This document shows, one piece after another, positions 1-15,369 of a DNA stretch of 39,705 bases. The translations under genes were made by a program, and so were the position numbers. This stretch comes from Gemmiger sp. An194 (GTDB lineage Bacteria; Bacillota; Clostridia; Oscillospirales; Ruminococcaceae), in NCBI RefSeq assembly GCF_002160145.1, contig NZ_NFKA01000025.1, positions 1-39,705 on the forward strand, in the 5' to 3' direction. The notes beneath the pieces were generated by a model, which saw nothing but the letters and a program-made list of their open reading frames with translations, made no database searches and was not told the DNA's origin. The number at the start of each line of letters is the position of its first letter. The stretch's first letter is position 1.

Positions 1-510
1 TGCAGCGCTGACTACGATGTGGAAAGCCCCATCACAAAGGAGTTTTTCGCAACGGTGCAGAATAAGCTCCACTATGCGGTCACCCATCATACCGCCGCCG
101 AGATCGTATATGGCCGTGCCGACAGCACTAAGCCCAACATGGGGCTTACCACATGGAAAAACGCCCCCAAAGGCCGTATCCGCAAATCGGATGTCACCGT
201 CGCCAAAAACTATCTGAACGAAACGGAAATGCGAAACCTGAACGAGATCGTCACCATGTACCTTGACTATGCGGAACGGCAGGCCCGCCGGGGAAATGTC
301 ATGTATATGGCCGATTGGGTCAAGCGTCTTGACGCATTTTTACAGTTCAACGAGGAAGATATTCTGCATGATAAAGGCAAGGTGACCGCCGCCATTGCCA
401 AAGCCTTTGCTGAGAAAGAGTTTGAAAAGTTCCGGGTATTGCAGGATCGGACCTATCAGAGCGACTTTGACCGGCTGGTTGCAGAAACTTCGGATGATCT
501 GACAGAATAA
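1..510 (+). CDS. rhuM: RhuM family protein, 3' part (5' end outside window)
   Basis: The reading frame is open from the first base, so the gene starts upstream of the window; the first GTG (19) is internal. The visible 169 residues match the C-terminal part of the RhuM family: the signatures FFATVQNKLHYAV, PNMGLTTWKNAPKG and VKRLDAFLQFNE are recognisable from memory. RhuM proteins were named from a Salmonella pathogenicity island and are common on mobile elements and near restriction systems; the biochemical role is not established. The stop is TAA and is followed by a strong hairpin terminator. Together with tnpV nearby, it suggests the left edge of the window is accessory DNA. The family call is fairly sure; no function is proposed. 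Confidence 0.8.
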   Translation, partial: CSADYDVESPITKEFFATVQNKLHYAVTHHTAAEIVYGRADSTKPNMGLTTWKNAPKGRIRKSDVTVAKNYLNETEMRNLNEIVTMYLDYAERQARRGNVMYMADWVKRLDAFLQFNEEDILHDKGKVTAAIAKAFAEKEFEKFRVLQDRTYQSDFDRLVAETSDDLTE

Positions 511-522
511 CCATATACGCAG

Positions 523-564
523 AAAGCCCACGCCACCGGTTCTCTTTCCGGCTGCGTGGGCTTT
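523..564. terminator. bidirectional rho-independent terminator
   Basis: An 11-bp perfect stem (523-533 with 554-564, arms AAAGCCCACGC/GCGTGGGCTTT) with a second short inner stem (CCGG) ends in T-runs on the plus strand and A-runs on the other side. It lies 13 nt after the rhuM stop and 13 nt after the end of the convergent 577-852 gene, so it can serve both. Confidence 0.8.
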
Positions 565-576
565 TTCGGCAATCGC

Positions 577-852
577 TTATTTCTTGTTTTGCAGCTGTTC
601 ATGGGCCTCCTGCTGGACAATCAGCCCCGCCGAAAAGCCATACTTGAAATGACTCTCACTTTCCTCGCACTGAGCGATAGCGTTCTGCGCCCGGAGTTCC
701 TCCACCAGAGCATAGTCCTCTTTGCTGAGCCGCTGGGATAACTGCTCCATCAACGCCGCACAGGTTTGGATCGCCTTGCGGTATTCCGGGGATGTGGGAA
801 TAACGGCTTCACAGGGATAAAACTCCCCGTTATACATGGCTTCCAAAATCAT
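577..852 (-). CDS. conserved hypothetical protein, DUF6809-like
   Basis: A 91-residue protein beginning MILEAMYNGEFYPCE. Its length, the N-terminal 'NGEFYP' block and the later 'YGFSAGLIVQQE' helix resemble small clostridial mobile-element proteins annotated as DUF6809; this match is from memory. It looks soluble and helical with no membrane segment. The start is supported by GGGAGGG six bases before ATG. It follows tnpV with a 13-nt gap on the same strand, so the two are probably co-transcribed. The function is unknown. It shares the terminator with rhuM. Confidence 0.6.
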   Translation of the reverse strand: MILEAMYNGEFYPCEAVIPTSPEYRKAIQTCAALMEQLSQRLSKEDYALVEELRAQNAIAQCEESESHFKYGFSAGLIVQQEAHEQLQNKK

Positions 853-865
853 TGCGTTCCCTCCC

Positions 866-1216
866 TCAACAGTAGACCAACTCCGCCAGGACGATTTCCT
901 CGGCTCTGTTGTGGATGGAGTTCATGGAGCGCACCCATGCCATCTGGTCGGCAGCTTTCAGGGCTTCTGTGACACCCTCTTGCTGTATCATGGCTTTTTC
1001 AATAATTTCCAGCCGCTCCCGGCAGGCGGTGTCGATTTCCTCCAAATGGAGAAACAGCTTTTCGGTGACAATGAGATCGGTATACAGAATGGGCCGGTGT
1101 TCTTTTAAGTAGGCACGGCGCAACCGGCCATATTTCCCGATATGGTACTCTTTGGTATCCGATAACACAAGGTCAGGAATGAGATAGTCGCCGCATTTGG
1201 TGTAAGTCAGTTCCAT
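866..1216 (-). CDS. tnpV: TnpV, transposon-encoded protein
   Basis: A 116-residue protein starting MELTYTKCGDYLIPDL, with the family blocks GKYGRLRRAYLKEHRP (about residues 27-42) and a C-terminal AEEIVLAELVY. This is the TnpV family, found on Tn4451-like and other clostridial mobilizable elements. Its role in transposition is not established. GAAAGGAG precedes the ATG. No recombinase or integrase lies nearby in the window, so this is either the edge of a larger element extending left or a remnant. The gene itself looks full length. Confidence 0.85.
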   Translation of the reverse strand: MELTYTKCGDYLIPDLVLSDTKEYHIGKYGRLRRAYLKEHRPILYTDLIVTEKLFLHLEEIDTACRERLEIIEKAMIQQEGVTEALKAADQMAWVRSMNSIHNRAEEIVLAELVYC

Positions 1217-1323
1217 ACAAGGCTCCTTTCGTGGGAATGTGGTTGACAGTTACGGTAGGTTTGAGGGCATTCCTCCTTTATCATAACTGTCTTTTCATTC
1301 GCCACAAATGAGCCGCCAGTCAT
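1207..1323 (-). CDS. possible 38-residue ORF overlapping the tnpV start
   Basis: An open frame beginning MTGGSFVANEKTV runs into the tnpV start and ends at the TGA inside tnpV's ATGGAACTGA, a layout typical of translational coupling. However, no Shine-Dalgarno sequence lies at a proper distance before its ATG, and I do not recognise the product. An AGGAGG at about 1271-1276 sits within it. It is reported only as a candidate. Confidence 0.2.
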   Translation of the reverse strand: MTGGSFVANEKTVMIKEECPQTYRNCQPHSHERSLVWN

Positions 1324-1370
1324 GATGTAATGTTTTTTGGTGTATTCCACCCTCTATACATTACATCATG
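1321..1370. repeat. 13-bp-arm inverted repeat upstream of tnpV
   Basis: CATGATGTAATGT (1321-1333) is the exact reverse complement of ACATTACATCATG (1358-1370), separated by 24 nt. It has no T-run, so it is not an obvious terminator. Its position at the boundary of the tnpV segment makes an element end, a recombination site or an operator possible. Confidence 0.6.
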
Positions 1371-1410
1371 CTTTTGATTGATGAAATGAGTGATGCGTGA
1401 TATATGATAA

Positions 1411-1602
1411 AAAATAATAATTGACCCGGTGAGGTGTTGCGTGAGAAGCCAAAGGTCTCCTTTTGAAATTACCAACCAAACGATTGACTATGTGGCGGAA
1501 CTTGCCGAGCTGGTGGGGAAACGATCGGCAGTATCTTTTCGGCCAATCCGACACTGTGACGCAGCAATCGGATTGGAACAATCCATGGAACGATTACTTT
1601 AG
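1411..1602 (+). pseudogene. possible N-terminal fragment of a Fic-family protein
   Basis: The frame opens after a TAA at 1408 and reads to TAG at 1600. Within it, SPFEITNQTIDYVAELAELV resembles the N-terminal helical region of bacterial Fic proteins (typically 'PFEIT...I..L.AEI.EL.G'). The rest of the roughly 300-residue protein, including the catalytic HxFx(D/E)GNGR loop, is absent. The frame has no ATG start with a ribosome site; a GTG at 1441 is the only plausible start. I read it as a decayed fragment; chance similarity is possible because the stretch is short. Confidence 0.35.
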
Positions 1603-1608
1603 TTACAT

Positions 1609-1653
1609 ACGAAGCCCGGAATGCCTGTCTGCATCAGGCCTTCCGGGCTTCGT
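1609..1653. terminator. stem-loop, terminator-like
   Basis: A perfect 13-bp stem (1609-1621 ACGAAGCCCGGAA with 1641-1653) plus further pairing of TGCCTG with CAGGC inside. It has weak T-content on the plus side. It directly follows the fic-like fragment and lies just beyond the small minus-strand frame ending at 1659. Confidence 0.5.
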
Positions 1654-1658
1654 TTACA

Positions 1659-1733
1659 TTAGCGGCGTCGATATCCCTCCGGGGTATAGATGCGGGCATC
1701 CATATAAATGACATGGTGCCGGTCACGATGCAT
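1659..1733 (-). other. possible 3' remnant of a minus-strand gene
   Basis: A 24-codon frame ends HVIYMDARIYTPEGYRRR then TAA, immediately before the 1609-1653 hairpin on that strand. The composition looks like a genuine protein C-terminus followed by its terminator, but the upstream sequence closes in frame at a TGA. I do not recognise the family. It may be the tail of a decayed mobile-element gene. Confidence 0.2.
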
Positions 1734-2296
1734 TTTTGTTTTTCAAAGCGTATCCTTCAGCAGGCAGAGGGATAGGGGACTGCAGCGGCAAAGTGCTTCC
1801 TCCTGTGCGGAGCGGCCAGAGGGGATGCCGCCGTCCGGATTGGTTGCCGATGCAACTTTAATCCGGCAACCGCTCTGCCGGATTTTCCGACTGCCTGCAG
1901 AGTCAGATCCCGGGATGCAATTCGGGTGGATTGCTCAAACCACTCCGGTAGTTCAGCATCAGGGGAAACCGGACTGAAACCGTAGAATACAGAGTCAGGT
2001 CTGCTAAAGTAGGATTTACATAAGAGGACATTGCCTGAAACTCCCGCCCAAGGGATTCCGGCACACTCCCTCATCTGGAGTTTTACGCAACCTCGCCATC
2101 ACAGAGCCCTGCAAATCCGAAAGATAAAATCGGTATGCGCAAACGAAAATCAAATTCTGTAAAACGGGTATAAAAAGGTATGCACAAAATCCGCTGAATT
2201 TTTCGGATTGGGGATAAAACACAGGCAAAAATTCCGCTTTTTGTGCGAGAGCAATCCGAAAAAGCATCACGAAACCATGCGCTTTTGCAGAACAGA
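1734..2296. other. intergenic region without a recognisable gene
   Basis: About 560 nt with short open frames on both strands, none with a ribosome site or a product I recognise. From about 2120 the base composition turns AT-richer and contains short repeated motifs (see the 2131-2185 entry). A weak hairpin with A/T flanks at about 2253-2288 could end the jet operon on the minus strand. Confidence 0.5.
2131..2185. repeat. GGTATGC motif pair downstream of jetD
   Basis: CGGTATGCGCAAA (2131-2143) and AGGTATGCACAAA (2176-2188) are two copies of the same 9-11 nt motif 45 nt apart, with a partial GGGTATA copy between them. Similar motifs in reverse orientation lie beyond the other end of the jet operon (10517-10641). 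Confidence 0.45.
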
Positions 2297-3571
2297 TTAC
2301 CCGGGCTGTACCAAATCGGACCAATAGCGTTCCACCAGTGCCTCCTGGTATCCCGCCTGTTTCCGATGCAGGATTGCCTGTGCCACCGGTTGCAGGAAGG
2401 GACACTGAACCTTTTCCAGCTGGCTGAGCCGGGAAGAGGATGAGATGGGCTTTGCGGAAAGGGCAATCTGGTAGTCTTGCAAGGTCATGTGCCAGAGGTG
2501 GAACCGGTCGCCATAGGTTTGCCACAACCGATCGGCAATGGCCAGCCCCTCCGGATCAAAATCCCCTGCATAGTAAAGGGAACACCCGGATGCAGCCAGC
2601 AGATCCAGCAGCTGCCAGGAAGCTTCCCGCAGCTGACCGGAGGTGCAGATCATGGGATGCAGGATCCCCGGCTGCCGGCACAGCGTGGAAAACACCATCT
2701 GGTTTTCCAGAAGGTAAACGCAGCCGGTGGGGCTGAACGCCGCTCCGAGTGCAGAGATCTGGGAAGAGGTCAGCAGACAGAACTGTTCCTGCTGACGCAG
2801 CTGGGCACAGGCGGGATGCTCCCGGCCATCCGGCAGAGCCAGAATCAGACCGCGCTGGACCGTAAAGCAGGAGATGTCATCCAGCATCAGGCCACATTCC
2901 CGGTACAGTGCCAGCCTGTCCCGGGAAAGCGAGGGAACAGACCAGCCTTTCCAGTAAGCCAGCGCATGTAGCAGCAGATGCCCGGCGGGCTTTTGTCCGT
3001 CCAGTGCATGGGGATCAGTGGAAATCGCATAGCTGCACAGCGCCAGCTCCTCCGGTTCAGAGGCCGTTGCCAGTCGATCCAGTGCGCAGCAGACCCAGTG
3101 CAGCCAGTGCGCCGCGTCCTTGTCGGTTTCAATGTGGGGTGCAAGCAGCTGAAAGCCATTGCTCTTGTCCTGTGCCATGGCGCAAAGCCAGTTTCGGGTA
3201 ACCGGCTGGTGAGTCAGTGCGTCCTCGGCGGCAAAAAATGCCTGTACGGCATCCTGCCGGACTGCTTTCTGGAGCGGATTGGAAAGCAGCGGTCGACCGT
3301 CCAGCCGCTGCCAGAAGTCAGCCATATCTGTAACGGCGAATCGACTGGCACGCAGGGCTTTTTCAAAATCGGAAAGCTTGTAGCGCAGGCGCGGCGGAAC
3401 AAACCGGCGGCCCAGCAGACCTTCGGCGGCCTGACATTCCGCGTCGGAGGCATCCGTCAGCTGAATCACGCCGTCGGAATATCCCGCAAGGGATTTTTTG
3501 CGCAGCTGTTTCAGTTGACGTTCCCAGGCAGGGGAATTGGTGAAATATCGGCAAAGTGCTTCGTCATTCAT
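2297..3571 (-). CDS. jetD: Wadjet protein JetD (TIGR02679/DUF2399-type nuclease subunit)
   Basis: A 424-residue protein beginning MNDEALCRYFTNSPAW. The C-terminal half carries the Toprim-like signature SLYYAGDFDPEGLAIADR, with the DFDPEG metal-binding acidic motif at about residues 337-342. In studied Wadjet systems JetD is a topoisomerase VI A-like nuclease that cuts circular DNA after the JetABC motor has acted. The length fits the TIGR02679 family. I chose the ATG at 3571 because it overlaps the jetC stop (ATGA) and follows GGAGGAGCT; the longer open frame upstream lies inside jetC. The assignment is strong from the gene order and the acidic motif. The end of the operon shows only a weak hairpin. 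Confidence 0.88.
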   Translation of the reverse strand: MNDEALCRYFTNSPAWERQLKQLRKKSLAGYSDGVIQLTDASDAECQAAEGLLGRRFVPPRLRYKLSDFEKALRASRFAVTDMADFWQRLDGRPLLSNPLQKAVRQDAVQAFFAAEDALTHQPVTRNWLCAMAQDKSNGFQLLAPHIETDKDAAHWLHWVCCALDRLATASEPEELALCSYAISTDPHALDGQKPAGHLLLHALAYWKGWSVPSLSRDRLALYRECGLMLDDISCFTVQRGLILALPDGREHPACAQLRQQEQFCLLTSSQISALGAAFSPTGCVYLLENQMVFSTLCRQPGILHPMICTSGQLREASWQLLDLLAASGCSLYYAGDFDPEGLAIADRLWQTYGDRFHLWHMTLQDYQIALSAKPISSSSRLSQLEKVQCPFLQPVAQAILHRKQAGYQEALVERYWSDLVQPG

Positions 3572-6500
3572 AGCTCCTCCATCCGGCGTGTATGGCCATC
3601 CCAGTGATAGCGTACCACCGTGACCACATCCGCGTCCTGCGGCCGCCAAAGCTCGGCGATGTTCAGGCTGGGAACCGACGCATAGCAGCCCCACAGCGCC
3701 TGCGAGTTCATGATATAGTTCAGTCCCAGCTGATGAACCAGAGCGAACATGCTCTCAATGTTGGTTTCGTCCACGCCGGCAAAGGCTTCATCCAGAGCCA
3801 TGAGCTGGGGGGCATCCTCGCTGGCCGCAGCATATTGGGCGGACAATGCGGCGAACAGCGGCACATACATGGCCATGGCTTTTTCGCCGCCGCTGAAGCT
3901 GTTAAAAGCGGAATCCGTCAGTTCCCGTTTTGTGGGTGCCGGGTTGACAGAATTACCCTTCTGATAATAGAGCTGGAACTCGAACCAGTTGCGGAAATCC
4001 AGTGCCTGCCGCATCAGTTCGGAATAGGTGGCAGGCACAGTACTCTGGCGGGACAGCTCCCGGGCCTTGGCGATTTTGGCGCGGAAATGGCTGGTGATCT
4101 TATCCCGGTCTGCATCGCCCATCACAGCGGGATCTTTACGCAGAAGATCGATGAGCTCGCGGGTGGTCAGCTCTTCCTGCTGATCGGCGGGTTTTCCCTT
4201 CCAGTTCAGGCTGAACCGCAGACCCATGGAGGTGTTCAGCTGTTCCATAATTTCGCTCATGCGGCGGGTCCAGTCCTGACTGTTGTTGATGCGATGACTC
4301 AACTTGGTGGTGATGGTCTGGTTCAGGATGGTTTCAAACAGACGCCGGTCCTCCATGGAAAGAATCTGCTGATCATCTTCAATGTGGCATTCGATGTACT
4401 GGATGAAATCCAGAAGATCCATCCGCTGTCCGTTGGGATACAGGTCGATGCAGGCGCGGGTGCGCAGCAGGTTGTCTTCATTCTCGAACAGGGGGTTCAG
4501 GGTAATGCGATAGGAGTTCAACACGCTGGCATCGCGCACATTCTTTTCAAGGGAGGTGCGCAGCCGGTCCAGTCCCAGATTCCGGTCGTTCTGCCGGATG
4601 GCATTCTTTGCGGTTTCCGCCTGCTTCCAGAGTTCGTTGTCATTGCGTCCCGGCTGACCCGGCCCATGGCAGAGCTCTTCCTCAAAAATCTGGCGCTTGC
4701 GTTCCTCGTCCAGCATGTCCCGCTGTAGCCGCTCCTTGCGCTGAGACAGATCCGGCAGATCGTGCTGCAGATCGTTCTGGCTCAGTGCAAGTTCCATTTT
4801 CGCACCCTCCAGGCGCTCGTGCACCTGTGCCAGCTCCTGGCGCAGTGACTCCAGCTTTTCGGCCAGAGCCCGGGTTTCCGGCTGGTTCAGGTACTCCTCC
4901 AATGCGTCAATCGAGACCTGTGTTTTGCGCAGATTTGCCTCGTGAAAACGGATTCGGTCGGTGCATTCCAGAAGGCTGTCATTCAGCTCATCCAGCTGCT
5001 GTTCCAGATCGTTCAAGCGGCCTTCGGTGAGTTCCAGCTTCCGTTTGTCGGCGGAAATATCCTGAAACAGGCTTCGGTACTCGTCACAGCAGCCTGCCAT
5101 GGCTTCATAGGTTTCGGCATTCCGCTCATAGGGCAGATCCTTGGTCAGGGGAAGCAGCTGCGCCCGGAGCGCGTTTGCCTGTTCCTGCTGACGCAAAAAA
5201 CGCTGCCGTCGATCCTCATGGATGCGTTCCTTTTGCTCCATTTCAACCCGCTGGGTGGATGCAAGCTGCAGACAGGCCGCCAGATCGGCGGTGGTGGGGC
5301 GCTGCTCGTATCCGTTTTGCAAAAGGGACAGGTCCGTTTCTACCCGATGAATCTGTTCCAGTGTGGCATGAATCTGCTGTTGCTGTTCCTCGACCTGCAA
5401 AGAAAGGGCGGCAATCTGGCGGCGCCGATTTTCCCGGCGGGTGGATGCACCGATGTAACCGGCGGGCTGCAGCGCCACACTGCGGCCCTGAATAGCGCCC
5501 TGCCGGTAGCGTCCGTCGGAGGAAAAATAGACTGTGCCCTCGGGCAGAGAAGAGATCCGACTCAGAAGGTCGGCCACATTGGCCCAGGCAGGCGCTTCGG
5601 ATGCAGGGCGCAGCGCAACAGGAGCGATAGCCTGTGGGGTGTTTTCCAGATTCAGAAAATGGTCGGGGTGCTCTGCCAGAATCACGGCGGCATCCTCTTT
5701 GGCGGATTCAGGCAGCACCAGCGCATCCAGAAGGCCGGTTTCCATCAGCTGGGTTTCCAAAAGTGCCTGTTGCTCCGGTGAGAGCTGATCATCAAAATCC
5801 ACCAGTTCGTAAAAAGCGGCGTGAGGAATGCCACGCTCTTTCAGCAGATCACGGGTCTGCTGAACTGCTTTGGAGCGGGGAGGAGGAAGTTCTTCCTGCT
5901 GTTCCAGCTCTCTGCGTTTGGCCGCAAGTTCATTGAGCGCCGCTTGCTGTTGAGAAGAGAGCTGCTTGAGTCGATAAAATTCGCCCTGAAGGGGACGGGC
6001 GAGGGCTTCACGGGCTGTGCGCAGCAGTTCCTGGATGGCCTGTTCCTGACAAAGACCTTCATATCCGTTCACCAGCCGGAACAGCTCCCGCAACTCATCC
6101 CGGTTCAGCCGGAAGGGGAGAGCGGGAGTTTCCAGCTGGGCAAAGGCTGCACACAGGCTGTCGCGTTCCCGCACCACAAGCTGTTCTGCTGCTTCCATCT
6201 GACTGCGGGCATGCTGCAGTTCCAGATTGGCCGCATCCAGATCCCGCTCGTAGCCGTCCAGCAGATCCAAAGCGGATTTGTGTTGCTGCAAAAGATTTGC
6301 GGCACTGCGCAACCGCTTTGCATACTGTGCCAGCAAGGGTAACTGAACATTGAAATCAAAGGCCGACAGGGAAGAGGGATGATGCGTCCAGCGCAGCTCC
6401 ACGTTCAGCAAATTCAGCTGCTGGAACTGCTGCTCTAAATTGTGCTGATGATCCTGAACCTCCTTCCGGGCCTGGCGCTGCTGGAGTTCCTTGCAGGAAA

Positions 6501-7602
6501 GAGTGGACTGCTTTTGGCGTTCCTTCGCTTGTTCCTGCTCGATCTGAGTTTGATGCTGGCGCTTTTCCTCTTGCAGCTGTTCCAGTCGCTGAACACTGCT
6601 CTCCAGACGGCTGTCTGCCTGCAGAGTATTCAGTTGTCCGGTGAGTTCGCTCTCCCGCTGGGAAAAGTTTTTGACATCGGTCTGCGCCTGTTGAAGACGG
6701 CGTTGTGTCCGTAAGATGAAATCCTCCTTTTCCTGAACTTCCAGCTGCTGTTTCTGGACAAGATGGCGGGCAGTGAGATAGGCTTCTGCTTTTTTGCCCA
6801 GCACAAACTGATTGTAGCGGATGTATTCCTTGCGCAGCTGGCGGGCCGCCTGCAAGCTGCGCTGCAGCTCGTCCAGCTGAACCTGAATATTGTCCATCCG
6901 CTCCATGGAGTTGACCATCGGGGCAATATCGTCTTCACTGAGGGGCTGCAACGAGGAATTCAAAATTTCCCGCACCAGACGGGGCGAGAAATCCTTGCTC
7001 AGTTTTGGTTTTCGGATCTGGATCAGCAGCCGAAGAAGCCGCTCATACTGTTCCAGCTCGGCGCATCCAAACAACATGCGGTTGACCATCTCTTTGTAGT
7101 CGCTGCTTCGTTCTGCCCAGTTTTCGTTTGGCCCCAGCCGGTTGTGGACTTCCTGACGGCTCAGTGAGATATGCTGCGAACCTTTGGTCTCAAAAAGGGG
7201 GAAATCGTGTTCGCCGGTTCCGATCCGCCGTCCGTCACTCAGGCACAACCCCCAGAACTCCACGGACTTATCCCGCCGGGCGCGCAGTCCCACCACAAGG
7301 GTGCGATAGAGCTGGGATTGCGGTTTCACAAATTCCAGATAGAGATACCCGGTGCTTTCCTCTTTCTCGTCGCCCAAAAGATAGTATTTCATATTGCGGT
7401 CCTTACTGCCGAAGGCATCCAGTCGATACGGACGAAGGTCGCCATCCAGCATAAAGGGAATAAAGCTTTGGGTGGTGACGGATTTGCCCGCACCGTTTTC
7501 GCCACGAAGCAAAAGTCGCCCATCGCTGAAGGGAAATTCCTCCCAGTCATACAGCCAAAAATTGACAAACCCCAATTTGTTCATCTGCCAGCGTTCCTGC
7601 AT
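3568..7602 (-). CDS. jetC: Wadjet protein JetC (TIGR02680, SMC-like ATPase)
   Basis: A 1344-residue SMC-like ATPase. Walker A GENGAGKS lies at residues 34-41, the ABC signature FSGGEKA at about 1236-1242, and Walker B LMALDEAF at about 1267-1274, so the ATPase head is split between the two ends as in SMC/MukB proteins. The middle is rich in Gln, Glu, Leu and Arg and is predicted to be long coiled coils, with a hinge-like region of different composition near residues 590-700. In Wadjet, JetC dimers extrude DNA loops together with JetA and JetB. The start ATG at 7602 follows GGGAGGG, 17 nt after the jetB stop; the open frame runs further upstream inside jetB without a ribosome site. The ATP-binding motifs are intact. 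Confidence 0.92.
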   Translation of the reverse strand: MQERWQMNKLGFVNFWLYDWEEFPFSDGRLLLRGENGAGKSVTTQSFIPFMLDGDLRPYRLDAFGSKDRNMKYYLLGDEKEESTGYLYLEFVKPQSQLYRTLVVGLRARRDKSVEFWGLCLSDGRRIGTGEHDFPLFETKGSQHISLSRQEVHNRLGPNENWAERSSDYKEMVNRMLFGCAELEQYERLLRLLIQIRKPKLSKDFSPRLVREILNSSLQPLSEDDIAPMVNSMERMDNIQVQLDELQRSLQAARQLRKEYIRYNQFVLGKKAEAYLTARHLVQKQQLEVQEKEDFILRTQRRLQQAQTDVKNFSQRESELTGQLNTLQADSRLESSVQRLEQLQEEKRQHQTQIEQEQAKERQKQSTLSCKELQQRQARKEVQDHQHNLEQQFQQLNLLNVELRWTHHPSSLSAFDFNVQLPLLAQYAKRLRSAANLLQQHKSALDLLDGYERDLDAANLELQHARSQMEAAEQLVVRERDSLCAAFAQLETPALPFRLNRDELRELFRLVNGYEGLCQEQAIQELLRTAREALARPLQGEFYRLKQLSSQQQAALNELAAKRRELEQQEELPPPRSKAVQQTRDLLKERGIPHAAFYELVDFDDQLSPEQQALLETQLMETGLLDALVLPESAKEDAAVILAEHPDHFLNLENTPQAIAPVALRPASEAPAWANVADLLSRISSLPEGTVYFSSDGRYRQGAIQGRSVALQPAGYIGASTRRENRRRQIAALSLQVEEQQQQIHATLEQIHRVETDLSLLQNGYEQRPTTADLAACLQLASTQRVEMEQKERIHEDRRQRFLRQQEQANALRAQLLPLTKDLPYERNAETYEAMAGCCDEYRSLFQDISADKRKLELTEGRLNDLEQQLDELNDSLLECTDRIRFHEANLRKTQVSIDALEEYLNQPETRALAEKLESLRQELAQVHERLEGAKMELALSQNDLQHDLPDLSQRKERLQRDMLDEERKRQIFEEELCHGPGQPGRNDNELWKQAETAKNAIRQNDRNLGLDRLRTSLEKNVRDASVLNSYRITLNPLFENEDNLLRTRACIDLYPNGQRMDLLDFIQYIECHIEDDQQILSMEDRRLFETILNQTITTKLSHRINNSQDWTRRMSEIMEQLNTSMGLRFSLNWKGKPADQQEELTTRELIDLLRKDPAVMGDADRDKITSHFRAKIAKARELSRQSTVPATYSELMRQALDFRNWFEFQLYYQKGNSVNPAPTKRELTDSAFNSFSGGEKAMAMYVPLFAALSAQYAAASEDAPQLMALDEAFAGVDETNIESMFALVHQLGLNYIMNSQALWGCYASVPSLNIAELWRPQDADVVTVVRYHWDGHTRRMEEL

Positions 7603-7621
7603 ACGAATATAAACCCTCCCA

Positions 7622-8743
7622 TCACTGTTTTTTCGGATAAATTCCCTGCCAGAGACTGAACCCTGGATTGAATGTAATGATGTCCTGATCGACGAATGCG
7701 AATCCCCAGTAAGACAATTCCTCCAGCACATCCTGTGCAAGTGCGGAAAGCTCTTTTTCCGCAGCGGTTTTTCCCCACTGAGCCTGATGTTCCCTGCGAA
7801 GTGCGTCCAATTCATCAAAGAAAGCCTGATAAGTCAGATGAATCCGGTCGTCCGCAGTTCGGTCAAAGATGCCACAGGCGGTTTTTTCACTCAAACGCTC
7901 AAAAAGCAACAGAATGATGTCGCTGAGCATCTGATCCCGTGGAAAGCAGTCGCCGCAGGGGACTCCTTCTTCCGGAAGGAAAAATGCCCCGTTATGATAG
8001 ACCTGCAGCGTTCCGCCGATGGTTTCGTCCAGATTGTGTTCCACCATACCGCGCTGATTTTTGATGTAGGCATACACCGGGTCTGCCGGGTCTGTCCAGT
8101 ACACAGCGGGCGCCAGTGCCAGCTGGCGATACACCCGATAGGTACGGAAAGTACCCCGGTCGGAATCCGGCCCGTCCACAGGAGGATTTTCAAAATCCGA
8201 AAGCGAAGTATAGCCGGAAATATCCCGGTGAAAATTCACGCTGAAATAGCGGCAAAGGCCGGTATTCTCGTACAGCACTTCCTGCTCCTGATGAGATGCA
8301 AAGGCGTTGCTTTCCCCCTCGCAGCTGTGCAGCAGACCAATTCGTTCCGAATATTGCAGTACGCGGACCAGAGAGGCGCGGCACTGATAACGCTCCCAGC
8401 TCAGTTCAGGCCAATAAGGCTTTACATAAGCGCTCAGTGCCTGTGTGAGCTCAGACAGCAAAAAGCGCTGACCGTCGTCCTTGTCCTCCAGCATCAGCAA
8501 AACACCGCACAAAAGGCAGTAGTCGCTGATTTCGGTAAAGTCGGAAATTCCGAATGCTGCATCAGCCTTGCCCGGCTCCTTGACCAGTCGAATCAATGTT
8601 TCGGTGCTGACAACTTCCCACCCGAACTGATCGCGCAGGGTGCGCCGCAGATCAGGAAGTTTGCGCCGAATCCGATAAAACAGTTCCCGGTCATCCTCTC
8701 TGCGAATCCAGAACTGATTCAAAAGGGTGCGAAATTCATCCAT
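7622..8743 (-). CDS. jetB: Wadjet protein JetB (TIGR02678/DUF2398, KITE-like subunit)
   Basis: A 373-residue protein beginning MDEFRTLLNQFWIRREDD. Features consistent with the TIGR02678 family are the 'LRDQFGWEVVST' block (about 40-51), the 'LCGVLLMLEDKDDGQRFLLS' block (about 80-99) and a C-terminal winged-helix-like segment. JetB is the KITE-type subunit linking kleisin and SMC-like ATPase in Wadjet complexes. The ATG at 8743 follows AGGAGG at good spacing and overlaps the end of jetA by 8 nt, indicating coupled translation. The call rests on family resemblance plus its position between jetA and jetC. Confidence 0.88.
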   Translation of the reverse strand: MDEFRTLLNQFWIRREDDRELFYRIRRKLPDLRRTLRDQFGWEVVSTETLIRLVKEPGKADAAFGISDFTEISDYCLLCGVLLMLEDKDDGQRFLLSELTQALSAYVKPYWPELSWERYQCRASLVRVLQYSERIGLLHSCEGESNAFASHQEQEVLYENTGLCRYFSVNFHRDISGYTSLSDFENPPVDGPDSDRGTFRTYRVYRQLALAPAVYWTDPADPVYAYIKNQRGMVEHNLDETIGGTLQVYHNGAFFLPEEGVPCGDCFPRDQMLSDIILLLFERLSEKTACGIFDRTADDRIHLTYQAFFDELDALRREHQAQWGKTAAEKELSALAQDVLEELSYWGFAFVDQDIITFNPGFSLWQGIYPKKQ

Positions 8744-10238
8744 GTGAGTGCGCCTCCTGGAAAACAAGACAGTATGCGGGAATGGTCAGATTTCCGTCGG
8801 TGCAGGGAAGGACGCAGGTCTTCCCTTGTGGACAGGTTATGGTGTAAATCTGACCATATTCCGTTCGGGCACGTTTGCTGGCATTGGCGTTTGCCTTCAC
8901 GACCCAGGATAAAAGTGTTTGCCGGACCTGAGGAGAGACGGGCTCCTGGACGGATGCGAAATCCAGCCGGCCGTTCCGGATGAGACGCTGCAGCTGATTG
9001 TGCAGTTCTTGTTTCTGCTGCAGATAGGCCTGCCGTTGAGCGGCTTTTTCCAGTCCCTTGTCGGAGAAAAAGCTCTTTTCCCGGGGTGGGCGGCCTGGTC
9101 GCCGCCGGTTGCGCAGAGGGTAGAGAAAGGGCTGTGCATCCAGACAGGCGTCGGTTTCATAAATGGTTTCCGCGTTGATTCCTGTCAGATGAACTGCCTG
9201 CTGAGCACCAAACACCATGCCGGAAAGGCGATGGGCATCTGCCAGTGTGGAACAGGCGGAAAAAAGCTCCAGAAACTTTTTGTACTCGTTTTTTCGGTTG
9301 GCGCCGCCGCTGTGAGCCTGCAGAATCAGCTCGGCATTCATCAGGATCCGCTGAATAATATCGTTGGCCAGATCCAGTACATGTTGGCTGTCGCTCTGGC
9401 TGTTTTCCGTCGGGACAAACCAGTGGTAAAAGCTGTTCCAGAAGCCGTAGACCTGATCACGCAGCTGTTGGTCATAGTTGTCATCCCGCTGGATCAGACG
9501 TCCTTCGCCTTCGCGCTTCTGGGCCGCATATACCTGTTCCAGAATTTCCCCGATCCGTTCATCGGGTAGGCACAGAAGAATCCGGCGGATTTTCTCCGCA
9601 TGGCGTTGCAGCTCCAGCACGAACTCCTGCAGATAGCGAATGACCTTATCCTTATAGGGTAAAAATTCCGAGGTTTGCAGAATATGTTCCGCCTGCGAGG
9701 AATAGAAATCCCGCAGATAATCCTGATATCGATTGGTAAGCTGGCGGAAATCCTGCTGCAGCAGATCCCATGACTGACTGATCGCATCGCTGTTCTGGAT
9801 GGAAAGCGCAGACATCCGATCCACGGTATCAAGAATTCGCTCAAACAGCTGAGAGGACAGCACAGCGGTGCGCAAGTTCAGGCTTTCCAGCGAAAGGGTC
9901 ATCCGCTCGATTTCCGTGGCAGCTTGAGACATGGAATAGCTGAACTGTTTGTTTTTGTATTCAGCGATGCTGCCGGGGCGATGAGGGTCCTGGATGGGAA
10001 CCAGATTCCGCCATTGGCACAAGGCACTGAGATCCTGTTCCAGTTCCTCTGCGGTGTATTGGGTGAAGTGGGAATCGGAGCGAAGCAAAGCCAGCAGCTG
10101 CTGCTTGTTCAAGCGGATGTTTGCTTTCTGGGATTCCAGATAGAAGATTCGCATAATCGCGCGATATCTGGATGCGTTCGCTGCTGTGAGGTAACTTGCC
10201 TCCGGAATATCGCTCAGTGTAATTGCTCGGAATTGCAT
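8736..10238 (-). CDS. jetA: Wadjet protein JetA (TIGR02677/DUF2397, kleisin-like subunit)
   Basis: A 500-residue protein starting MQFRAITLSDIPEASYLTAAN. The N-terminal part looks like a winged-helix domain (to about residue 105), followed by long helical segments, consistent with the kleisin-like JetA of type II Wadjet. I chose the ATG at 10238 because GGTGA lies 5 nt upstream; an in-frame GTG three codons earlier (10247) overlaps that site and is the alternative. It is the first gene of the operon, with a good promoter about 80-110 nt upstream. Confidence 0.87.
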   Translation of the reverse strand: MQFRAITLSDIPEASYLTAANASRYRAIMRIFYLESQKANIRLNKQQLLALLRSDSHFTQYTAEELEQDLSALCQWRNLVPIQDPHRPGSIAEYKNKQFSYSMSQAATEIERMTLSLESLNLRTAVLSSQLFERILDTVDRMSALSIQNSDAISQSWDLLQQDFRQLTNRYQDYLRDFYSSQAEHILQTSEFLPYKDKVIRYLQEFVLELQRHAEKIRRILLCLPDERIGEILEQVYAAQKREGEGRLIQRDDNYDQQLRDQVYGFWNSFYHWFVPTENSQSDSQHVLDLANDIIQRILMNAELILQAHSGGANRKNEYKKFLELFSACSTLADAHRLSGMVFGAQQAVHLTGINAETIYETDACLDAQPFLYPLRNRRRPGRPPREKSFFSDKGLEKAAQRQAYLQQKQELHNQLQRLIRNGRLDFASVQEPVSPQVRQTLLSWVVKANANASKRARTEYGQIYTITCPQGKTCVLPCTDGNLTIPAYCLVFQEAHSHG

Positions 10239-10319
10239 GGCGTTCACCGTCCGTTCTGCAAAAATCAGGGCCGCTTCTTTTGGGTAATGGGATAAAGGGC
10301 TTTACTAATAGTGTAACGG

Positions 10320-10348
10320 ATGATATGTCCGATAAAAAGGGATTTCAA
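10320..10348 (-). promoter_or_regulatory. promoter of the jet operon
   Basis: On the minus strand, TTGAAA (10343-10348) and TATCAT (10320-10325) are separated by exactly 17 nt, a good sigma-70/SigA-type match, giving a leader of about 75 nt before jetA. Confidence 0.6.
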
Positions 10349-10490
10349 GCAATCGGAAGATTTTTGTCGGAAAGATAAAACAAGTGGCGAATGAATTGTG
10401 AAATACTTCCAAAAGCATCCAAGACGCCCAGATCATGGAACGGAAAAACGAGACTGCACTCCATTACATTGCGGGAAAAGTGGTATAGAA

Positions 10491-10562
10491 AAACAGGCCA
10501 AAAGAAGGGGGACAGGCGCATACCGGTTTTGCGGAAAAATCAGTTCGCGAAAAGGCCTGTTT
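10491..10562. repeat. 9-bp inverted repeat upstream of the jet promoter
   Basis: AAACAGGCC (10491-10499) and GGCCTGTTT (10554-10562) are exact reverse complements separated by 54 nt. The interval contains one of the GCATACCGG motifs. Its function is unknown. Confidence 0.45.
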
Positions 10563-10641
10563 GGGGAAGGTTTTTCCGTGTTCTATTTTTGCCCAAAACG
10601 CATACCGGTTTTGGAGTCGTTTCGTTCGAAAGCGCATACGG
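10517..10641. repeat. GCATACCGG motif cluster upstream of jetA
   Basis: GCGCATACCGGTTTTG (10517-10532), CGCATACCGGTTTTG (10599-10613) and GCGCATACGG (10632-10641) repeat the same core; degenerate copies (TATACCGG near 10704, GCGTATACC near 10723) follow. The region from 10350 to 10960 otherwise has no recognisable complete gene. The same core in reverse complement occurs downstream of jetD. Confidence 0.5.
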
Positions 10642-10810
10642 ATTAATAGACGGCAACCCGGGGACAAACCCGCTTGTTATAAGGCTTTGGAGAGAAAATT
10701 TTATACCGGAAAACAGTGAGAAGCGTATACCACAAACAGGGTGAAGAGAACGTGAGTTCATTAGGGCTATTTAGAGCGGTGCGTCGGGAGGTAAAATTTG
10801 TACCAAAAAT

Positions 10811-10850
10811 GCCCGGCCGCGAACTGTTTTGGAAGCAGTTGTAGCTGGGC
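10811..10850 (-). terminator. hairpin, possible terminator
   Basis: GCCCGGCCGCGAACTG (10811-10826) pairs with CAGTTGTAGCTGGGC (10836-10850) with G-U pairs and one bulge. On the minus strand it is followed by ATTTTT, so it could terminate transcription entering from 11 kb. Confidence 0.45.
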
Positions 10851-10867
10851 GTTTTCAGGGTGGGTTC

Positions 10868-11002
10868 TAGCTGGAAATGCTCAATGGAACGGAAGAAATC
10901 ATTCTGACCGGGTGATTCCTTTAAGAGTTCAGAGAGAGGTTCTATCAAACTCTCAAAAATAGCCTGTTGATTTGGGCGGCTGTGTGCTAGAATAGTATCC
11001 AT
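10868..11002 (-). other. possible gene fragment, unrecognised
   Basis: The minus strand reads MDTILAHSRPNQQAIFESLI and continues for about 45 residues of protein-like, amphipathic-helix composition. After that the frame enters the 10811-10850 hairpin, and its composition stops looking coding. There is no ribosome site before the ATG. It could be the 5' remnant of an insertion-sequence gene. I do not recognise the family. Confidence 0.25.
10967..10993 (+). promoter_or_regulatory. promoter of the moaE-like gene
   Basis: TTGATT (10967-10972) and an extended -10, TGCTAGAAT with TAGAAT at 10988-10993, are present; the 15-nt spacer is short but the TGn extension compensates. It predicts a leader of about 90 nt. 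Confidence 0.45.
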
Positions 11003-11013
11003 AAAACAAGGCA

Positions 11014-11073
11014 GGGCAGTTTGTAATTTACTGCCCGCAGAGAAAATCCGAAAAGAACACGGTGGTTCTTTTC
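11014..11073 (+). promoter_or_regulatory. two perfect hairpins in the moaE-like leader
   Basis: Hairpin 1 is GGGCAGT/ACTGCCC (11014-11020 with 11030-11036). Hairpin 2 is GAAAAGAAC/GTTCTTTTC (11050-11058 with 11065-11073, 6-nt loop), ending directly before the ribosome site AGGGAGGAG. No T-run follows, so hairpin 2 could affect translation or mRNA stability rather than terminate. The structure does not match any riboswitch class I recognise. Confidence 0.4.
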
Positions 11074-11089
11074 AGGGAGGAGAAGCAAG

Positions 11090-11533
11090 ATGAATAACGA
11101 AACAACCGCCGTCACCAGCCCGGCGGAACGGAACAATGCACAAAAGCAAAACGTGCCTTCCATCGAGCAGTGGATGAAGGAGGCAAAGCAGCAGCCCGAT
11201 GCTGACCAGTGCGGGATGTATCTGTTTCACAACGGGGTGGTACGGGGTACTGCCAAAGCACAGGTGCGCCATGGCGAGAACTCGCCGCGGGTGACGGGAA
11301 TGCAGTTTTCCTTTGATCAGAAGAAGGTGGATGCAGCGGTGCAGCGCATCAAAAAGATGCCGGGCATTTTCCATGTGCGGGCATGGCTGAACAGCGGAAC
11401 AATGCAGGTGGGCGACGACCTGATGCTACTTCTGGTGGGCGGCGATATCCGCCCCCATGTGGTGGATGCACTGCAGGCCCTTCTGGATGAACTGAAATCC
11501 ATCTGCGTGAAGGAACAGGAGCATTACGAATAA
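11090..11533 (+). CDS. MoaE-like (molybdopterin synthase large-subunit-like) protein
   Basis: A 147-residue protein. The block GMYLFHNGVVRGTAK (about residues 42-56) corresponds to the MoaE 'F.G.VR' segment, and FHVRAWLNSGTMQVGDD (about 94-110) to the 'HR.G.l.iGe' segment. A Lys-Glu-rich C-terminus (VKEQE) matches the position of the catalytic Lys region of MoaE. MoaE catalyses sulfur insertion into precursor Z with MoaD. The first 30 residues are an extra low-complexity extension. No other molybdenum cofactor gene is in the window, so the role may differ from classical MoaE. The start has GGGAGGAG at good spacing. Confidence 0.7.
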   Translation: MNNETTAVTSPAERNNAQKQNVPSIEQWMKEAKQQPDADQCGMYLFHNGVVRGTAKAQVRHGENSPRVTGMQFSFDQKKVDAAVQRIKKMPGIFHVRAWLNSGTMQVGDDLMLLLVGGDIRPHVVDALQALLDELKSICVKEQEHYE

Positions 11534-11555
11534 GAAGTTCTCTAAAAATCAAAGA

Positions 11556-11599
11556 AACGCGGCAGCAAGGCCTTTTTCGGAAGGCTTTGCTGCCGCGTT
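11556..11599. terminator. bidirectional terminator
   Basis: AACGCGGCAGCAAGGCCTT (11556-11574) pairs with 11581-11599 (13 perfect bp plus inner wobble pairs) around a TTTTTCGG-type loop, followed by CTTTT on plus and T-rich sequence on minus. It separates the moaE-like gene from the convergent transporter gene. Confidence 0.8.
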
Positions 11600-11647
11600 C
11601 TTTTACAGGGCTAACATTTGGTTTAAGAATGAAAAGTGAAGGCCCAG

Positions 11648-12577
11648 TTATCCCACCAGCTGAAGCAGCCAGTAGGCCAGCGGAATGGTCACGATGGAAC
11701 AGACTGTCGTAACGAAGATGCCGCCCATGACGTAATCGCCTTCTGTACCGGAGGCCTTTGCCATCATGACCAGAGAGGACATAGCGGGCATGGCTGCCAG
11801 CAGGGAAACCGTCAGGTGGATGCTCTCGTCAATGGGAAGCAGACTGGTCGCCAGATAGAAGAGGACCGAAAACGCGACCATCTTTACCAGCACGATCCCA
11901 TAGAATTCCTTTACCCGCAGATAGCTCCGAATGTCCATGCAGGCAAATACGCCGCCCAGATAGATCATGGCCATGGGGGTGGCTGTGGCGCCGATCTTGC
12001 TCAGCGCGGTATTCAGAAGTTGCGGCAGGGGGATACCGGTTACCACCAGCAGCACCGAAGCGACAATGGCCACCGTGCAGGGGTTGATCATCTTTTTCGG
12101 CTGGAACGTGCCCTTTTCACCGGACCCGGTCAGCTGAACGCCCAGCGTCCAGAGAACCAGCTGATCCACAATGGTGAATACCGAGATGTACAGCATACCC
12201 TGTTCCGGAAAGATGCTGGAAACAATGGGGATGCCCATAAAACCCACATTGCCGAACATACTCAGCGCCCGGTATACCTGAGCCCGGCTGCCCTGCAGAT
12301 GAAACAGGCGAGCCAAACCCTTGCCCAGGAAGAAGGTGCAGAAATAGAACACCACTGCCAGCCTCAGCACCGGCAGCGAGCGGATCAGAGCAGACCGATC
12401 CACACCGCTTACTGTGTTGATAAAGATCATGACCGGCAGACCCAGTTTCAATACAAAGCGGGACAAAGTTTCCAGTGTAGTGGCATTGAATACCTTTGTT
12501 TTAACCAGAAAAACGCCCACGATGATATAAATGACGAACAGACCGATCTGTTCAAAAATGATTGTAAGAATGTCCAT
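11648..12577 (-). CDS. AEC family (auxin efflux carrier-type) transporter
   Basis: A 309-residue integral membrane protein with about ten hydrophobic segments: N-terminal IGLFVIYIIVGVFL, the 'FGNVGFMGIPIVSSIFPE' motif (about residues 107-124) typical of the AEC/malate permease family, and a second repeat from about residue 165. Members export or import organic acids or small metabolites; the substrate cannot be read from sequence. It is the last gene of a minus-strand operon behind a MarR-type regulator and a PhlG-like hydrolase, 27 nt after the latter, which suggests an aromatic or organic-acid compound. It appears intact while its two operon partners are broken. Confidence 0.88.
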   Translation of the reverse strand: MDILTIIFEQIGLFVIYIIVGVFLVKTKVFNATTLETLSRFVLKLGLPVMIFINTVSGVDRSALIRSLPVLRLAVVFYFCTFFLGKGLARLFHLQGSRAQVYRALSMFGNVGFMGIPIVSSIFPEQGMLYISVFTIVDQLVLWTLGVQLTGSGEKGTFQPKKMINPCTVAIVASVLLVVTGIPLPQLLNTALSKIGATATPMAMIYLGGVFACMDIRSYLRVKEFYGIVLVKMVAFSVLFYLATSLLPIDESIHLTVSLLAAMPAMSSLVMMAKASGTEGDYVMGGIFVTTVCSIVTIPLAYWLLQLVG

Positions 12578-12604
12578 GAATGATTCTCTGCCTTTGTTGC
12601 TGGA

Positions 12605-13393
12605 TTATTTCAGACCCTTGTGCGGGCAGCAGTATTCCCACTGCTCCTCGCCGGTTTTGCGAATGGTCAGATCGCACACCACGTTCTGCGAGGGGTCCGG
12701 ATGACCTTTCCACAACTGGTACAGCTGGGGCAGAAATTTGGGCTACCGGCTGGCCGCGTACTCCGCGTGATCCGTGGTGCTGGGAGGCTGCAGTCTGGCA
12801 TGAGGATCTTTGGCAAGAATTTCTTTCACAAAATGAGGCGGTTCAAACACCGTGGTGCTTGCCACTGCTGCGGTGATGTGGCTACAGCCACCCTCACAGT
12901 CCTGCCACATGTGCACGGTCATGTCCACAAATTCGTCTTTGTCGTTGAACACACCCTCCACGAGGACATGGCTCAGCGCATAGGTGAAGGGAAAGTACTC
13001 CAGTCCCAGACGGTGGATCTCTATGCCTTCGCCGCCGAACACCGGGCTGCCTTTGCCCACAAATTCGGAGATCATGTGCACGGAGTTGCCGAACCCATAC
13101 TCTCAGGGAGCTTTTACCCAGCTGAACCGTTTGTGGGAACCGGGGGCCCAGAGGTAATACCCCTTTTCCATGTTGGCCCAGAACCAATCCAGCATCTTTG
13201 CGCTCACGCCGGGAAGAAAATGCTGCGTCTGGGACTGCAGCACCCACTCCTTCTCCTGCGCCATAGCGTTCAGCTCCAGCGGGGGATATTCCGGCTGGGG
13301 GCGGCTCAGCCTCTCATAGGGTAAAATATCGATTTCGGTGTTTTCCCGGACGGGCATATAGGTCTGCCCGGCGGTTGCCTGATAGTCTGTCAT
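12605..13393 (-). pseudogene. PhlG-like (2,4-diacetylphloroglucinol hydrolase family) gene with two in-frame stops
   Basis: A single frame from ATG (13393) to TAA (12605) gives 262 codons but is interrupted by TGA at codon 97 (13103-13105) and TAG at codon 217 (12743-12745); no indel is needed. The sequence around the first stop reads HKRFSWVKAP-stop-EYGFGNSVHMISE, where relatives appear to have Trp, so TGG to TGA is likely. The blocks WFWANMEKGYYLW and HMWQDCEGG fit the PhlG-like family, whose characterised member cleaves a C-C bond in 2,4-diacetylphloroglucinol using zinc held by His and Glu. The start has GAAAGGA at good spacing. It lies 16 nt after the marR-like gene. It is most simply a pseudogene; readthrough is a less likely alternative. 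Confidence 0.75.
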
Positions 13394-13409
13394 GGTTCTT
13401 CCTTTCTCG

Positions 13410-13852
13410 TTACAGATGATACCCGATGTTATCCAGCATACAATCGGTAAACCGGATCAGCTCTGCCTGTTCCTCTGCCGAAAGACCAGCGCAGAGAGTT
13501 TTTGTGATTGCTTCGTCCGCCTGTGCCAGTTCCAGATACAAATTCCGGGAACGCTTGGTGCAGCTGAGCTTCTTATACCGGCGGTCGATGGTACTGGTGG
13601 TACAGGTCACAAAGCCTTTTTTCTCCAGCCGTTTGATCATCTCGGTCATGGTCGGATGGGTTACCTGCTCGGCTTGTTCAAGATCCCTCTGATTTACTTC
13701 CGATACACCGAACGCCTCCATGCGGCTCAGCTCGCCAAGGACCCGCAGCTGTACAGCCCTGAGCCCCAGCTGGTCCGCTTTTTTGTTGAGGTGCTGCTTG
13801 AATGCCCGGTCAATGATGGCAAGCGTCTGCCCAATGAGATGTATTCCGCCAT
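13410..13852 (-). pseudogene. MarR family regulator, frameshifted near its 5' end
   Basis: From about 13835 down to the stop the frame encodes a typical MarR protein: TLAIIDRAFKQHLNKKADQL, then QLRVLGELSRMEAF, the recognition-helix region THPTMTEMIKRLEKKGFV and the wing with TSTIDRRYKKL. The well-placed ribosome site TAGGAGGAG and ATG at 13852 (MAEYISLG...) are in another frame. One missing base near 13830-13836 joins them, and 443 nt is exactly one base short of a 147-codon gene. Translation from an internal ATG (13721) would lack the N-terminal dimerisation helices. A sequencing error is an alternative. Confidence 0.75.
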
Positions 13853-13870
13853 ATGCGCTCCTCCTAATAG

Positions 13871-13912
13871 GTAGTACACTACTTATTTTATCCCTGTTTT
13901 AGTAATTCTCAA
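13871..13912 (-). promoter_or_regulatory. promoter and operator of the marR-like operon
   Basis: On the minus strand, TTGAGA (13907-13912) and TAAAAT (13885-13890) are 16 nt apart. Just downstream, at the expected start of transcription, GTAGTACACTAC (13871-13882) is a near-perfect palindrome (GTAGT-AC-ACTAC) suited to a dimeric MarR-type repressor, indicating autoregulation. Confidence 0.6.
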
Positions 13913-13988
13913 TGGGTGCGGCTGACGGGAAAATGAGGCAAAATACCGCATAGCATCAATGGCGTACGGGGTGTGGTTTCCGCAGAAA

Positions 13989-14026
13989 AAGGGCTATTGC
14001 TTCACAAAAGTGAAGCAATAGCCCTT
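13989..14026 (-). terminator. terminator of the lacI-type gene
   Basis: A perfect 17-bp stem (13989-14005 with 14010-14026) closed by a 4-nt loop; on the minus strand it is followed by TTTTTC. It is the strongest terminator in the window and lies 54 nt after the regulator gene. Confidence 0.9.
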
Positions 14027-14080
14027 GGCATATAAAATGGATGTGTATCGGAAGTTTCGCGATCAATATTTCGCTGCCTT

Positions 14081-15073: not shown

Positions 15074-15124
15074 GAAGCTCCTCGTTTTTTCAAAAAGAAG
15101 AAAAGATTCCTTTGCTTTGTATCC

Positions 15125-15153
15125 ATTATAACGGCTTTTGGGCGGAAAATCAA
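15125..15153 (-). promoter_or_regulatory. promoter of the lacI-type gene
   Basis: On the minus strand, TTGATT (15148-15153) and a consensus TATAAT (15125-15130) are 17 nt apart, about 50 nt before the ATG. Confidence 0.75.
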
Positions 15154-15197
15154 TGTGCAGGGCGGCGAAAGCAATTGATAAGACCAATGAAAAGAAG

Positions 15198-15212
15198 TTT
15201 CGTAAAGTTTTG
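15198..15212. promoter_or_regulatory. upstream operator-like site
   Basis: TTTCGTAAAGTTTTG is the reverse complement, apart from one base, of the 15332-15346 site. It lies upstream of the lacI-type promoter, 120 nt from the second copy. A pair of such sites around divergent promoters suits LacI-type looping or cooperative binding. A weaker related sequence (GTGACGAAAGTAA) lies near 15230. Confidence 0.5.
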
Positions 15213-15293
15213 AAGTGCTGCTGTGGAAAGTGACGAAAGTAACTGGAAATCCTTGTGCATTAGGCAGAAAATGGCGGAATAGCCCCAGAAACC

Positions 15294-15323
15294 TTGACGG
15301 CGAAGGAGGAAGGGGAGTATAGT
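15294..15323 (+). promoter_or_regulatory. promoter of the alpha-glucan operon
   Basis: TTGACG (15294-15299) and TATAGT (15318-15323) are separated by 18 nt, placing the start of transcription near 15330, about 40 nt before the first ATG. Confidence 0.65.
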
Positions 15324-15331
15324 GATTACGG

Positions 15332-15346
15332 CGAAACTTTACGAAA
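15332..15346 (+). promoter_or_regulatory. operator-like site at the transcription start
   Basis: CGAAACTTTACGAAA overlaps the predicted start of transcription, where a bound LacI-type protein would block RNA polymerase. It repeats the 15198 site in inverted orientation. Confidence 0.5.
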
Positions 15347-15369
15347 TAAATTGAAGGAGGAACAAGCAA

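What the first reader, a model, noticed from the sequence alone, without database searches (positions are those of the whole stretch)
2297..10348. Complete type II Wadjet anti-plasmid operon
Four consecutive minus-strand genes match JetA, JetB, JetC and JetD in canonical order, with intact SMC-type ATPase motifs in JetC and the DFDPEG acidic motif in JetD. They have overlapping starts and their own promoter. Wadjet restricts circular plasmids by loop extrusion and cutting. In this likely gut-anaerobe background it would matter for genetic accessibility of the host.
Basis: partly seen in the sequence, partly recalled or inferred. Interest (0 to 1): 0.75.

Follow-up and report, generated by a model that had tools for sequence, protein, structure and literature searches.

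The report
Ordinary type II Wadjet anti-plasmid operon
Four adjacent genes in this gut bacterium very likely make a known kind of machine that reels in small circular DNA such as plasmids and cuts it; the set looks intact and kept by selection, so it is a normal member of a known family rather than something new.

Summary
Confirmed and ordinary. Four minus-strand genes (10247 to 2297) match PADLOC JetA2, JetB2, JetC2 and JetD2 best and NCBIfam TIGR02677/78/80/79, each above its cut-off. JetA, JetB and JetC each match PDB complex 9qe0/9qe1 by sequence; the predicted JetD fold (pLDDT 91.5) matches P. aeruginosa JetD first and topoisomerase VI-A next. ATPase and Toprim residues are invariant in 12 JetC and 16 JetD sequences. 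dN/dS is 0.03-0.22 in 12 of 12 pairwise comparisons. The operon sits at the same place in two other species of the genus, next to different DNA on its downstream side. Plasmid restriction is inferred from the family; nothing here measured it. Unexplained extra: CGCATACCGRTTTT, exact 4 times in the genome, 3 of them beside this operon and facing outward on both sides; its shorter core is common (38 copies), and no function is shown.

The parts
8736..10247 (-). jetA (type II, DUF2397, kleisin); start GTG 10247 or ATG 10238
   Evidence: PADLOC JetA2 2.7e-156; TIGR02677 252 vs cut-off 166 bits; PDB 9qe0_E 3.9e-54; dN/dS 0.066-0.070
7622..8743 (-). jetB (type II, DUF2398, KITE)
   Evidence: PADLOC JetB2 1.4e-119 (given from TTG 8767); TIGR02678 177 vs 125 bits; PDB 9qe0_D 4.9e-41; dN/dS 0.03-0.15
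3568..7602 (-). jetC (type II SMC ATPase)
   Evidence: PADLOC JetC2 1270.7 bits; TIGR02680 684 vs 463 bits; PDB 9qe0_A 1.4e-167; G34/N36/G39/K40/S41, S1237-G1238-G1239-E1240, D1271/E1272 invariant in 12 sequences
2297..3571 (-). jetD (type II, DUF3323+DUF2399, Toprim nuclease)
   Evidence: PADLOC JetD2 8.3e-117 (given from GTG 3694); TIGR02679 212.5 vs 196 bits; E289, D337, D339, E341 invariant in 16 sequences; model pLDDT 91.5, best PDB fold match JetD 7til_B, E 9.6e-6
10248..10360 (-). likely promoter/leader of the operon; exact boxes unresolved
   Evidence: consensus match only; CCTTTTTATCGGA just upstream of jetA also in L033 and L071, and TTACACTATT also in L033, read by eye
10513..10646 (+). 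three copies of a repeat, GCGCATACCGGTTTT, at 10516 (15/15), 10598 (14/15), 10632 (11/15); function unknown
2126..2185 (-). copies of the same repeat downstream of jetD, facing the other way: 2126 (14/15), 2171 (11/15); function unknown

Best explanation
The four genes encode a complete type II Wadjet (JetABCD) complex that selection keeps intact. By the family's reported mechanism, JetC (SMC ATPase) with JetA (kleisin) and JetB (KITE) forms a dimeric motor that extrudes circular DNA; when a small circle has been fully reeled in, the JetD Toprim nuclease is activated and cuts it, so small plasmids are lost while the chromosome escapes. Shown here: identity, gene order, intact motifs, predicted JetD fold, purifying selection, conserved position in three species of the genus. 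Inferred from the family: expression, complex formation, loop extrusion, cleavage, plasmid restriction in this host.
For: Type II HMMs best for 4 of 4 proteins; TIGRFAM cut-offs passed by 4 of 4; JetA, B and C each match the same solved complex 9qe0/9qe1; JetD model matches JetD 7til and topo VI-A; catalytic residues invariant; no internal stops in the three species compared and dN/dS 0.03-0.22 in 12 of 12 comparisons; synteny in L031 and L032. A type II Wadjet from Neobacillus vireti is reported to cleave naked circular DNA (PMC12647877, passages).
Against: No activity was or could be measured. The promoter is unproven. JetD has no sequence-level PDB match (12 hits, all xylose isomerases, E 0.77 or above) and rests on HMMs and fold; the Foldseek match to 7til has low TM-scores (0.29/0.32) and rmsd 18.3. 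TIGR02679 is passed by a modest margin (212.5 vs 196 bits). Most published work is on type I, as a 2023 review says (PMC10586767, passages).
Confidence: 0.93

Rival explanations
1. The operon is a genuine JetABCD set but serves mainly chromosome maintenance (MukBEF-like) rather than plasmid defence in this host.
For: Syntenic in three species of the genus and under purifying selection, beside metabolic genes on one side.
Against: JetD, the Toprim nuclease, is present, intact and selected; MukBEF has no such subunit (recalled). In the family draw 5 of 297 genomes, the window's own included, have a TIGR02680 match over the cut-off (two more, G058 and G205, have long matches below it), so it is not a housekeeping gene of the group.
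Confidence: 0.04
2. The operon is the cargo of a mobile element whose ends carry the repeated GCGCATACCGGTTTT sites in inverted orientation.
For: Outward-facing repeats on both sides; exact CGCATACCGRTTTT 4 times in 3.07 Mb, 3 of them here; the downstream side borders different DNA in the three species.
Against: No pair of target duplication and terminal inverted repeat stands out: best score 14, reached or exceeded in 9 of 20 shuffles. The jet proteins themselves are not transposases or integrases; the other, mostly antisense, ORFs between the repeats were not searched. No empty site found. No close relative of JetA on plasmids: 13 of 72,556 records match, all below 60% identity, best about 28%.
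Confidence: 0.02
3. Decaying, inactive Wadjet remnant.
For: None found.
Against: Full-length frames, invariant catalytic residues, low dN/dS.
Confidence: 0.01

Closest known systems
Wadjet type II (JetA2-JetB2-JetC2-JetD2; TIGR02677/78/80/79), e.g. N. vireti nvJET; PDB 9qe0/9qe1
   Same: Four subunits, gene order A-B-C-D, near full-length profile coverage, catalytic motifs
   Different: Other host group (Oscillospiraceae); distant in sequence from 9qe0; flanking repeats of its own. That 9qe0/9qe1 is the N. vireti complex is my guess: the tool gave molecule names only.
Wadjet of Fournierella massiliensis DSM 100451 (L031) and Gemmiger sp. An87 (L032)
   Same: Same locus; JetA-D 96-99% identical in protein
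   Different: Different DNA beyond the downstream side of the operon
Wadjet type I / MksBEFG (P. aeruginosa, E. coli GF4-3, C. glutamicum)
   Same: Same kind of parts; predicted JetD fold matches P. aeruginosa JetD first
   Different: Type I models match weakly or not at all: JetC1 9.5e-16, JetD1 6.3e-6, JetB1 0.013, no JetA1

Membership tests
Wadjet type II | JetA/B/C/D proteins score best against type II models, above type I and III | tested here: met
   4 of 4
Wadjet type II | TIGR02677, 02678, 02680, 02679 above curated cut-offs | tested here: met
   4 of 4
Wadjet type II | Four genes adjacent, one strand, order jetA-jetB-jetC-jetD | tested here: met
Wadjet type II | Intact SMC ATPase motifs (Walker A, signature, Walker B) | tested here: met
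   window plus 11 of 16 loci
Wadjet type II | JetD with Toprim fold and acidic residues E and DxDxE | tested here: met
   fold is a prediction and the TM-score to 7til is low
Wadjet type II | JetC hinge without a central channel, as reported for nvJET | not tested
   hinge not modelled; PMC12647877 passages
Wadjet type II | Restriction of small circular plasmids by cleavage | not testable with these tools
   needs an experiment
Mobile defence cassette with terminal repeats | Terminal inverted repeats with target-site duplication | tested here: not met
   best score 14, equalled or exceeded in 9 of 20 shuffles

The most novel reading that the evidence does not exclude
The outward-facing GCGCATACCG(G/A)TTTT repeats on both sides of the operon are cis sites dedicated to this Wadjet system, bound by an unknown regulator, by a mobilising recombinase, or by the complex itself (autoregulation, loading or self-marking). 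My paper searches listed nothing that I recognised as a cis-acting DNA site of Wadjet, but I saw those papers as listings or passages only; one listed paper, on WYL regulators beside defence systems (PMC9122601), mentions Wadjet and was not read.
Probability: 0.07. Interest if true: 0.5.

Novelty: new member of a known kind. Interest (0 to 1): 0.18.

Why it matters
It places an intact, conserved type II Wadjet in a genus of gut anaerobes, which predicts that small circular plasmids will be poorly maintained there and that deleting jetC or jetD could ease genetic work. The system itself is well described; the only open point is the flanking repeat.

Tried and rejected
TetR operator idea: the fourth exact genome copy of the flank motif lies between promoter and start codon of a gene that I read as TetR-family (by eye). 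In the 4 orthologous promoters aligned, the exact motif is absent in 4 of 4 and the core CCGGTATGCG is kept in 1 of 4 (L083), so I treat it as chance.

Mobile-cassette ends: one search gave nothing beyond shuffles (best 14; 9 of 20 base-shuffled controls reach 14 or 15). Empty site: the only moaE-like match in a genus member without the operon (G261) lies beside genes that I read as molybdopterin genes, a different place. JetA on plasmids: 13 of 72,556 records, 2 covering 80% or more, best about 28% identity. Downstream flank in phages: no match.

Motif elsewhere: 14 of 16 loci were scanned at 12 of 15 or better (L041 and L043 not given). Outside L031 and L032: none in 7 (L033, L034, L036, L038, L040, L045, L046), one in L035 (about 150-190 bp upstream of its jetA), one in L037, two in L039, one in L042, four in L044; my hand estimate of chance is about 0.6 per 24 kb. 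In 14 other operons compared flank to flank (the L033 upstream flank was 725 bases, the L036 and L073 downstream flanks 163 and 0), two of them L031 and L032, I saw no clear counterpart outside L031 and L032. A shared inverted 11-mer around the G220 operon occurs twice in that genome, reversed control also twice, and four such shared 11-mers were seen there, so it is weak.

Against locus-specificity: the 9-base core CGGTATGCG occurs 38 times in the genome (reversed control 15), and with one mismatch CGCATACCGRTTTT gives 9 matches (control 1). Motif columns are 41 of 45 identical across three species against 86% for the whole upstream stretch: no proof of selection.

RNA: no Rfam match in the window at gathering scores or at 1366-2300 up to E 1. 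A Fic remnant at about 1457-1603 was my recollection from reading the frame; no Pfam match at E 0.1, not claimed.

Papers: PMC12647877, PMC10586767 and PMC12287153 were seen as passages; in the last, the Wadjet type of C. cellulovorans was not in what I saw. The others were seen as search listings only. No paper in the held library has Fournierella, 'defense system' and plasmid together.

Full report
Observation. Four minus-strand ORFs lie head to tail between 10247 and 2297. jetA ends at 8736 and jetB starts at ATG 8743 (8-nt overlap); jetB ends at 7622 and jetC starts at ATG 7602 (19-nt gap); jetC and jetD overlap by 4 nt as ATGA at 3568-3571.

Identity. PADLOC type II models win for 4 of 4: JetA2 2.7e-156, JetB2 1.4e-119, JetC2 1270.7 bits (E printed as 0), JetD2 8.3e-117; type I and III models are far weaker or absent. 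NCBIfam TIGR02677, 02678, 02680 and 02679 exceed their cut-offs, TIGR02679 by a modest margin. Pfam gives DUF2397, DUF2398, SbcC_Walker_B, and DUF3323 plus DUF2399. By sequence, JetC, JetA and JetB each hit the solved complex 9qe0/9qe1 (1.4e-167, 3.9e-54, 4.9e-41). JetD has no sequence-level PDB relative (12 xylose isomerases at E 0.77 or above).

Active sites. In JetC, Walker A (G34, N36, G39, K40, S41), signature S1237-G-G-E1240 and Walker B D1271-E1272 are invariant in 12 sequences: the window plus 11 of the 16 loci; L034, L038, L041, L042 and L043 were left out as partial or split matches. In JetD, E289, D337, D339, E341 and G342 are invariant in 16 sequences: the window plus 15 of 16 loci, L041 ending before jetD. 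The AlphaFold2 model of JetD (pLDDT 91.5, pTM 0.70) matches P. aeruginosa JetD 7til_B first (E 9.6e-6, probability 1.00, but TM 0.29/0.32 and rmsd 18.3) and topoisomerase VI A subunits next; 5 of 102 matches have E of 0.001 or less, and these five are JetD or topo VI.

Selection and position. Two other species carry the operon at the same place: L031 (Fournierella massiliensis; Allofournierella in NCBI taxonomy) and L032 (Gemmiger sp. An87). Their contigs have the same lengths as G025:C12 and G137:C17, so I count three species in all, not five. No internal stop was seen in the four genes in the three species, and dN/dS is 0.066-0.070 (jetA), 0.03-0.15 (jetB), 0.10-0.13 (jetC) and 0.15-0.22 (jetD). 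In a draw of 297 genomes of the family, the window's own listed among them, 31 have some TIGR02680 match at E 0.001 and 5 pass the cut-off; G058 and G205 have long matches below it. The window's genome shows one TIGR02680 match and one DUF2397 match.

Surroundings. Upstream of the operon lie a MoaE-like gene, a membrane transporter and a maltodextrin/glycogen cluster. Downstream, about 850-930 bp past jetD, the three species part: the window has a TnpV gene and a RhuM-type gene cut by the contig edge, its stretch 550-1376 being found also at 550-1375 of another contig of the same genome (95%), and the two others have other DNA. So different DNA, mobile at least in the window, has entered beside the operon.

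An unexplained extra. GCGCATACCGGTTTT stands at 10516 (15/15), 10598 (14/15) and 10632 (11/15) on the plus strand and at 2126 (14/15) and 2171 (11/15) on the minus strand, so it faces away from the operon on both sides; 11/15 matches alone are common in the window. Exact CGCATACCGRTTTT occurs 4 times in the 3.07 Mb genome, 3 of them here, reversed control 0 exact. In the two other carriers 2 of 2 (G025) and 3 of 3 (G137) copies lie beside the operon, and the four other genus genomes searched (G207, G261, G297, G298; two of them 84-88% complete) have none; of these four, G207 and G261 had no TIGR02680 match, the others were not tested for it. Dinucleotide shuffles of the two flanks gave a comparable repeat in 0 of 200 runs, with a measure chosen after the motif was seen. 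Against its being special: the 9-base core CGGTATGCG occurs 38 times in the genome against 15 for the reversed control, motif columns are hardly more conserved than their surroundings, no transposon ends stand out, no clear counterpart was seen in more distant Wadjet loci, and the gene beside the fourth copy does not keep it in relatives. The longer repeat is real; what it does is unknown.

Mechanism. From passages of the review PMC10586767 and of PMC12647877: JetABC is an SMC motor that extrudes circular DNA, JetD cuts when extrusion is complete, and a type II complex from N. vireti cleaves naked circular DNA. I infer the same for this operon. Not shown: expression, complex formation, cleavage, plasmid loss.

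Verdict. This is a new member of a known kind, of low interest beyond annotation; the flanking repeat is the only part that may repay a second look.

Noticed in passing
window 1-1376: RhuM-type gene cut by the contig edge (19-510), which also matches the PADLOC candidate family PDC-S05 at 4e-71, and TnpV; stretch 550-1376 stands also on another contig of the same genome (G000:C3:550-1375, 95%). At the same junction L031 has a frame that looks to me like a relaxase and L032 two long frames that look like serine recombinases (by eye, not searched).
   Followed up: partly
window 1453-1990: Apparently non-coding stretch downstream of jetD differs by about 1% between the window and L031 although jet-gene dS for that pair is 0.07-0.15; L032 has a 27-base gap there. 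No Rfam match.
   Followed up: partly
window 14000-17593 versus L032: Practically identical to Gemmiger sp. An87 (0-0.4% per 250-base bin) while bins from 1366 to 14000 differ by 0-15%, which suggests recent recombination.
   Followed up: no
window 1609-1653: Strong hairpin (19-nt arms, 95% complementary), identical in L031 and L032; perhaps a terminator.
   Followed up: no
window 32924-33778: ABC-transporter ATPase that also matches PADLOC mad3 at 6.8e-28, most likely only through the shared ATPase fold.
   Followed up: no
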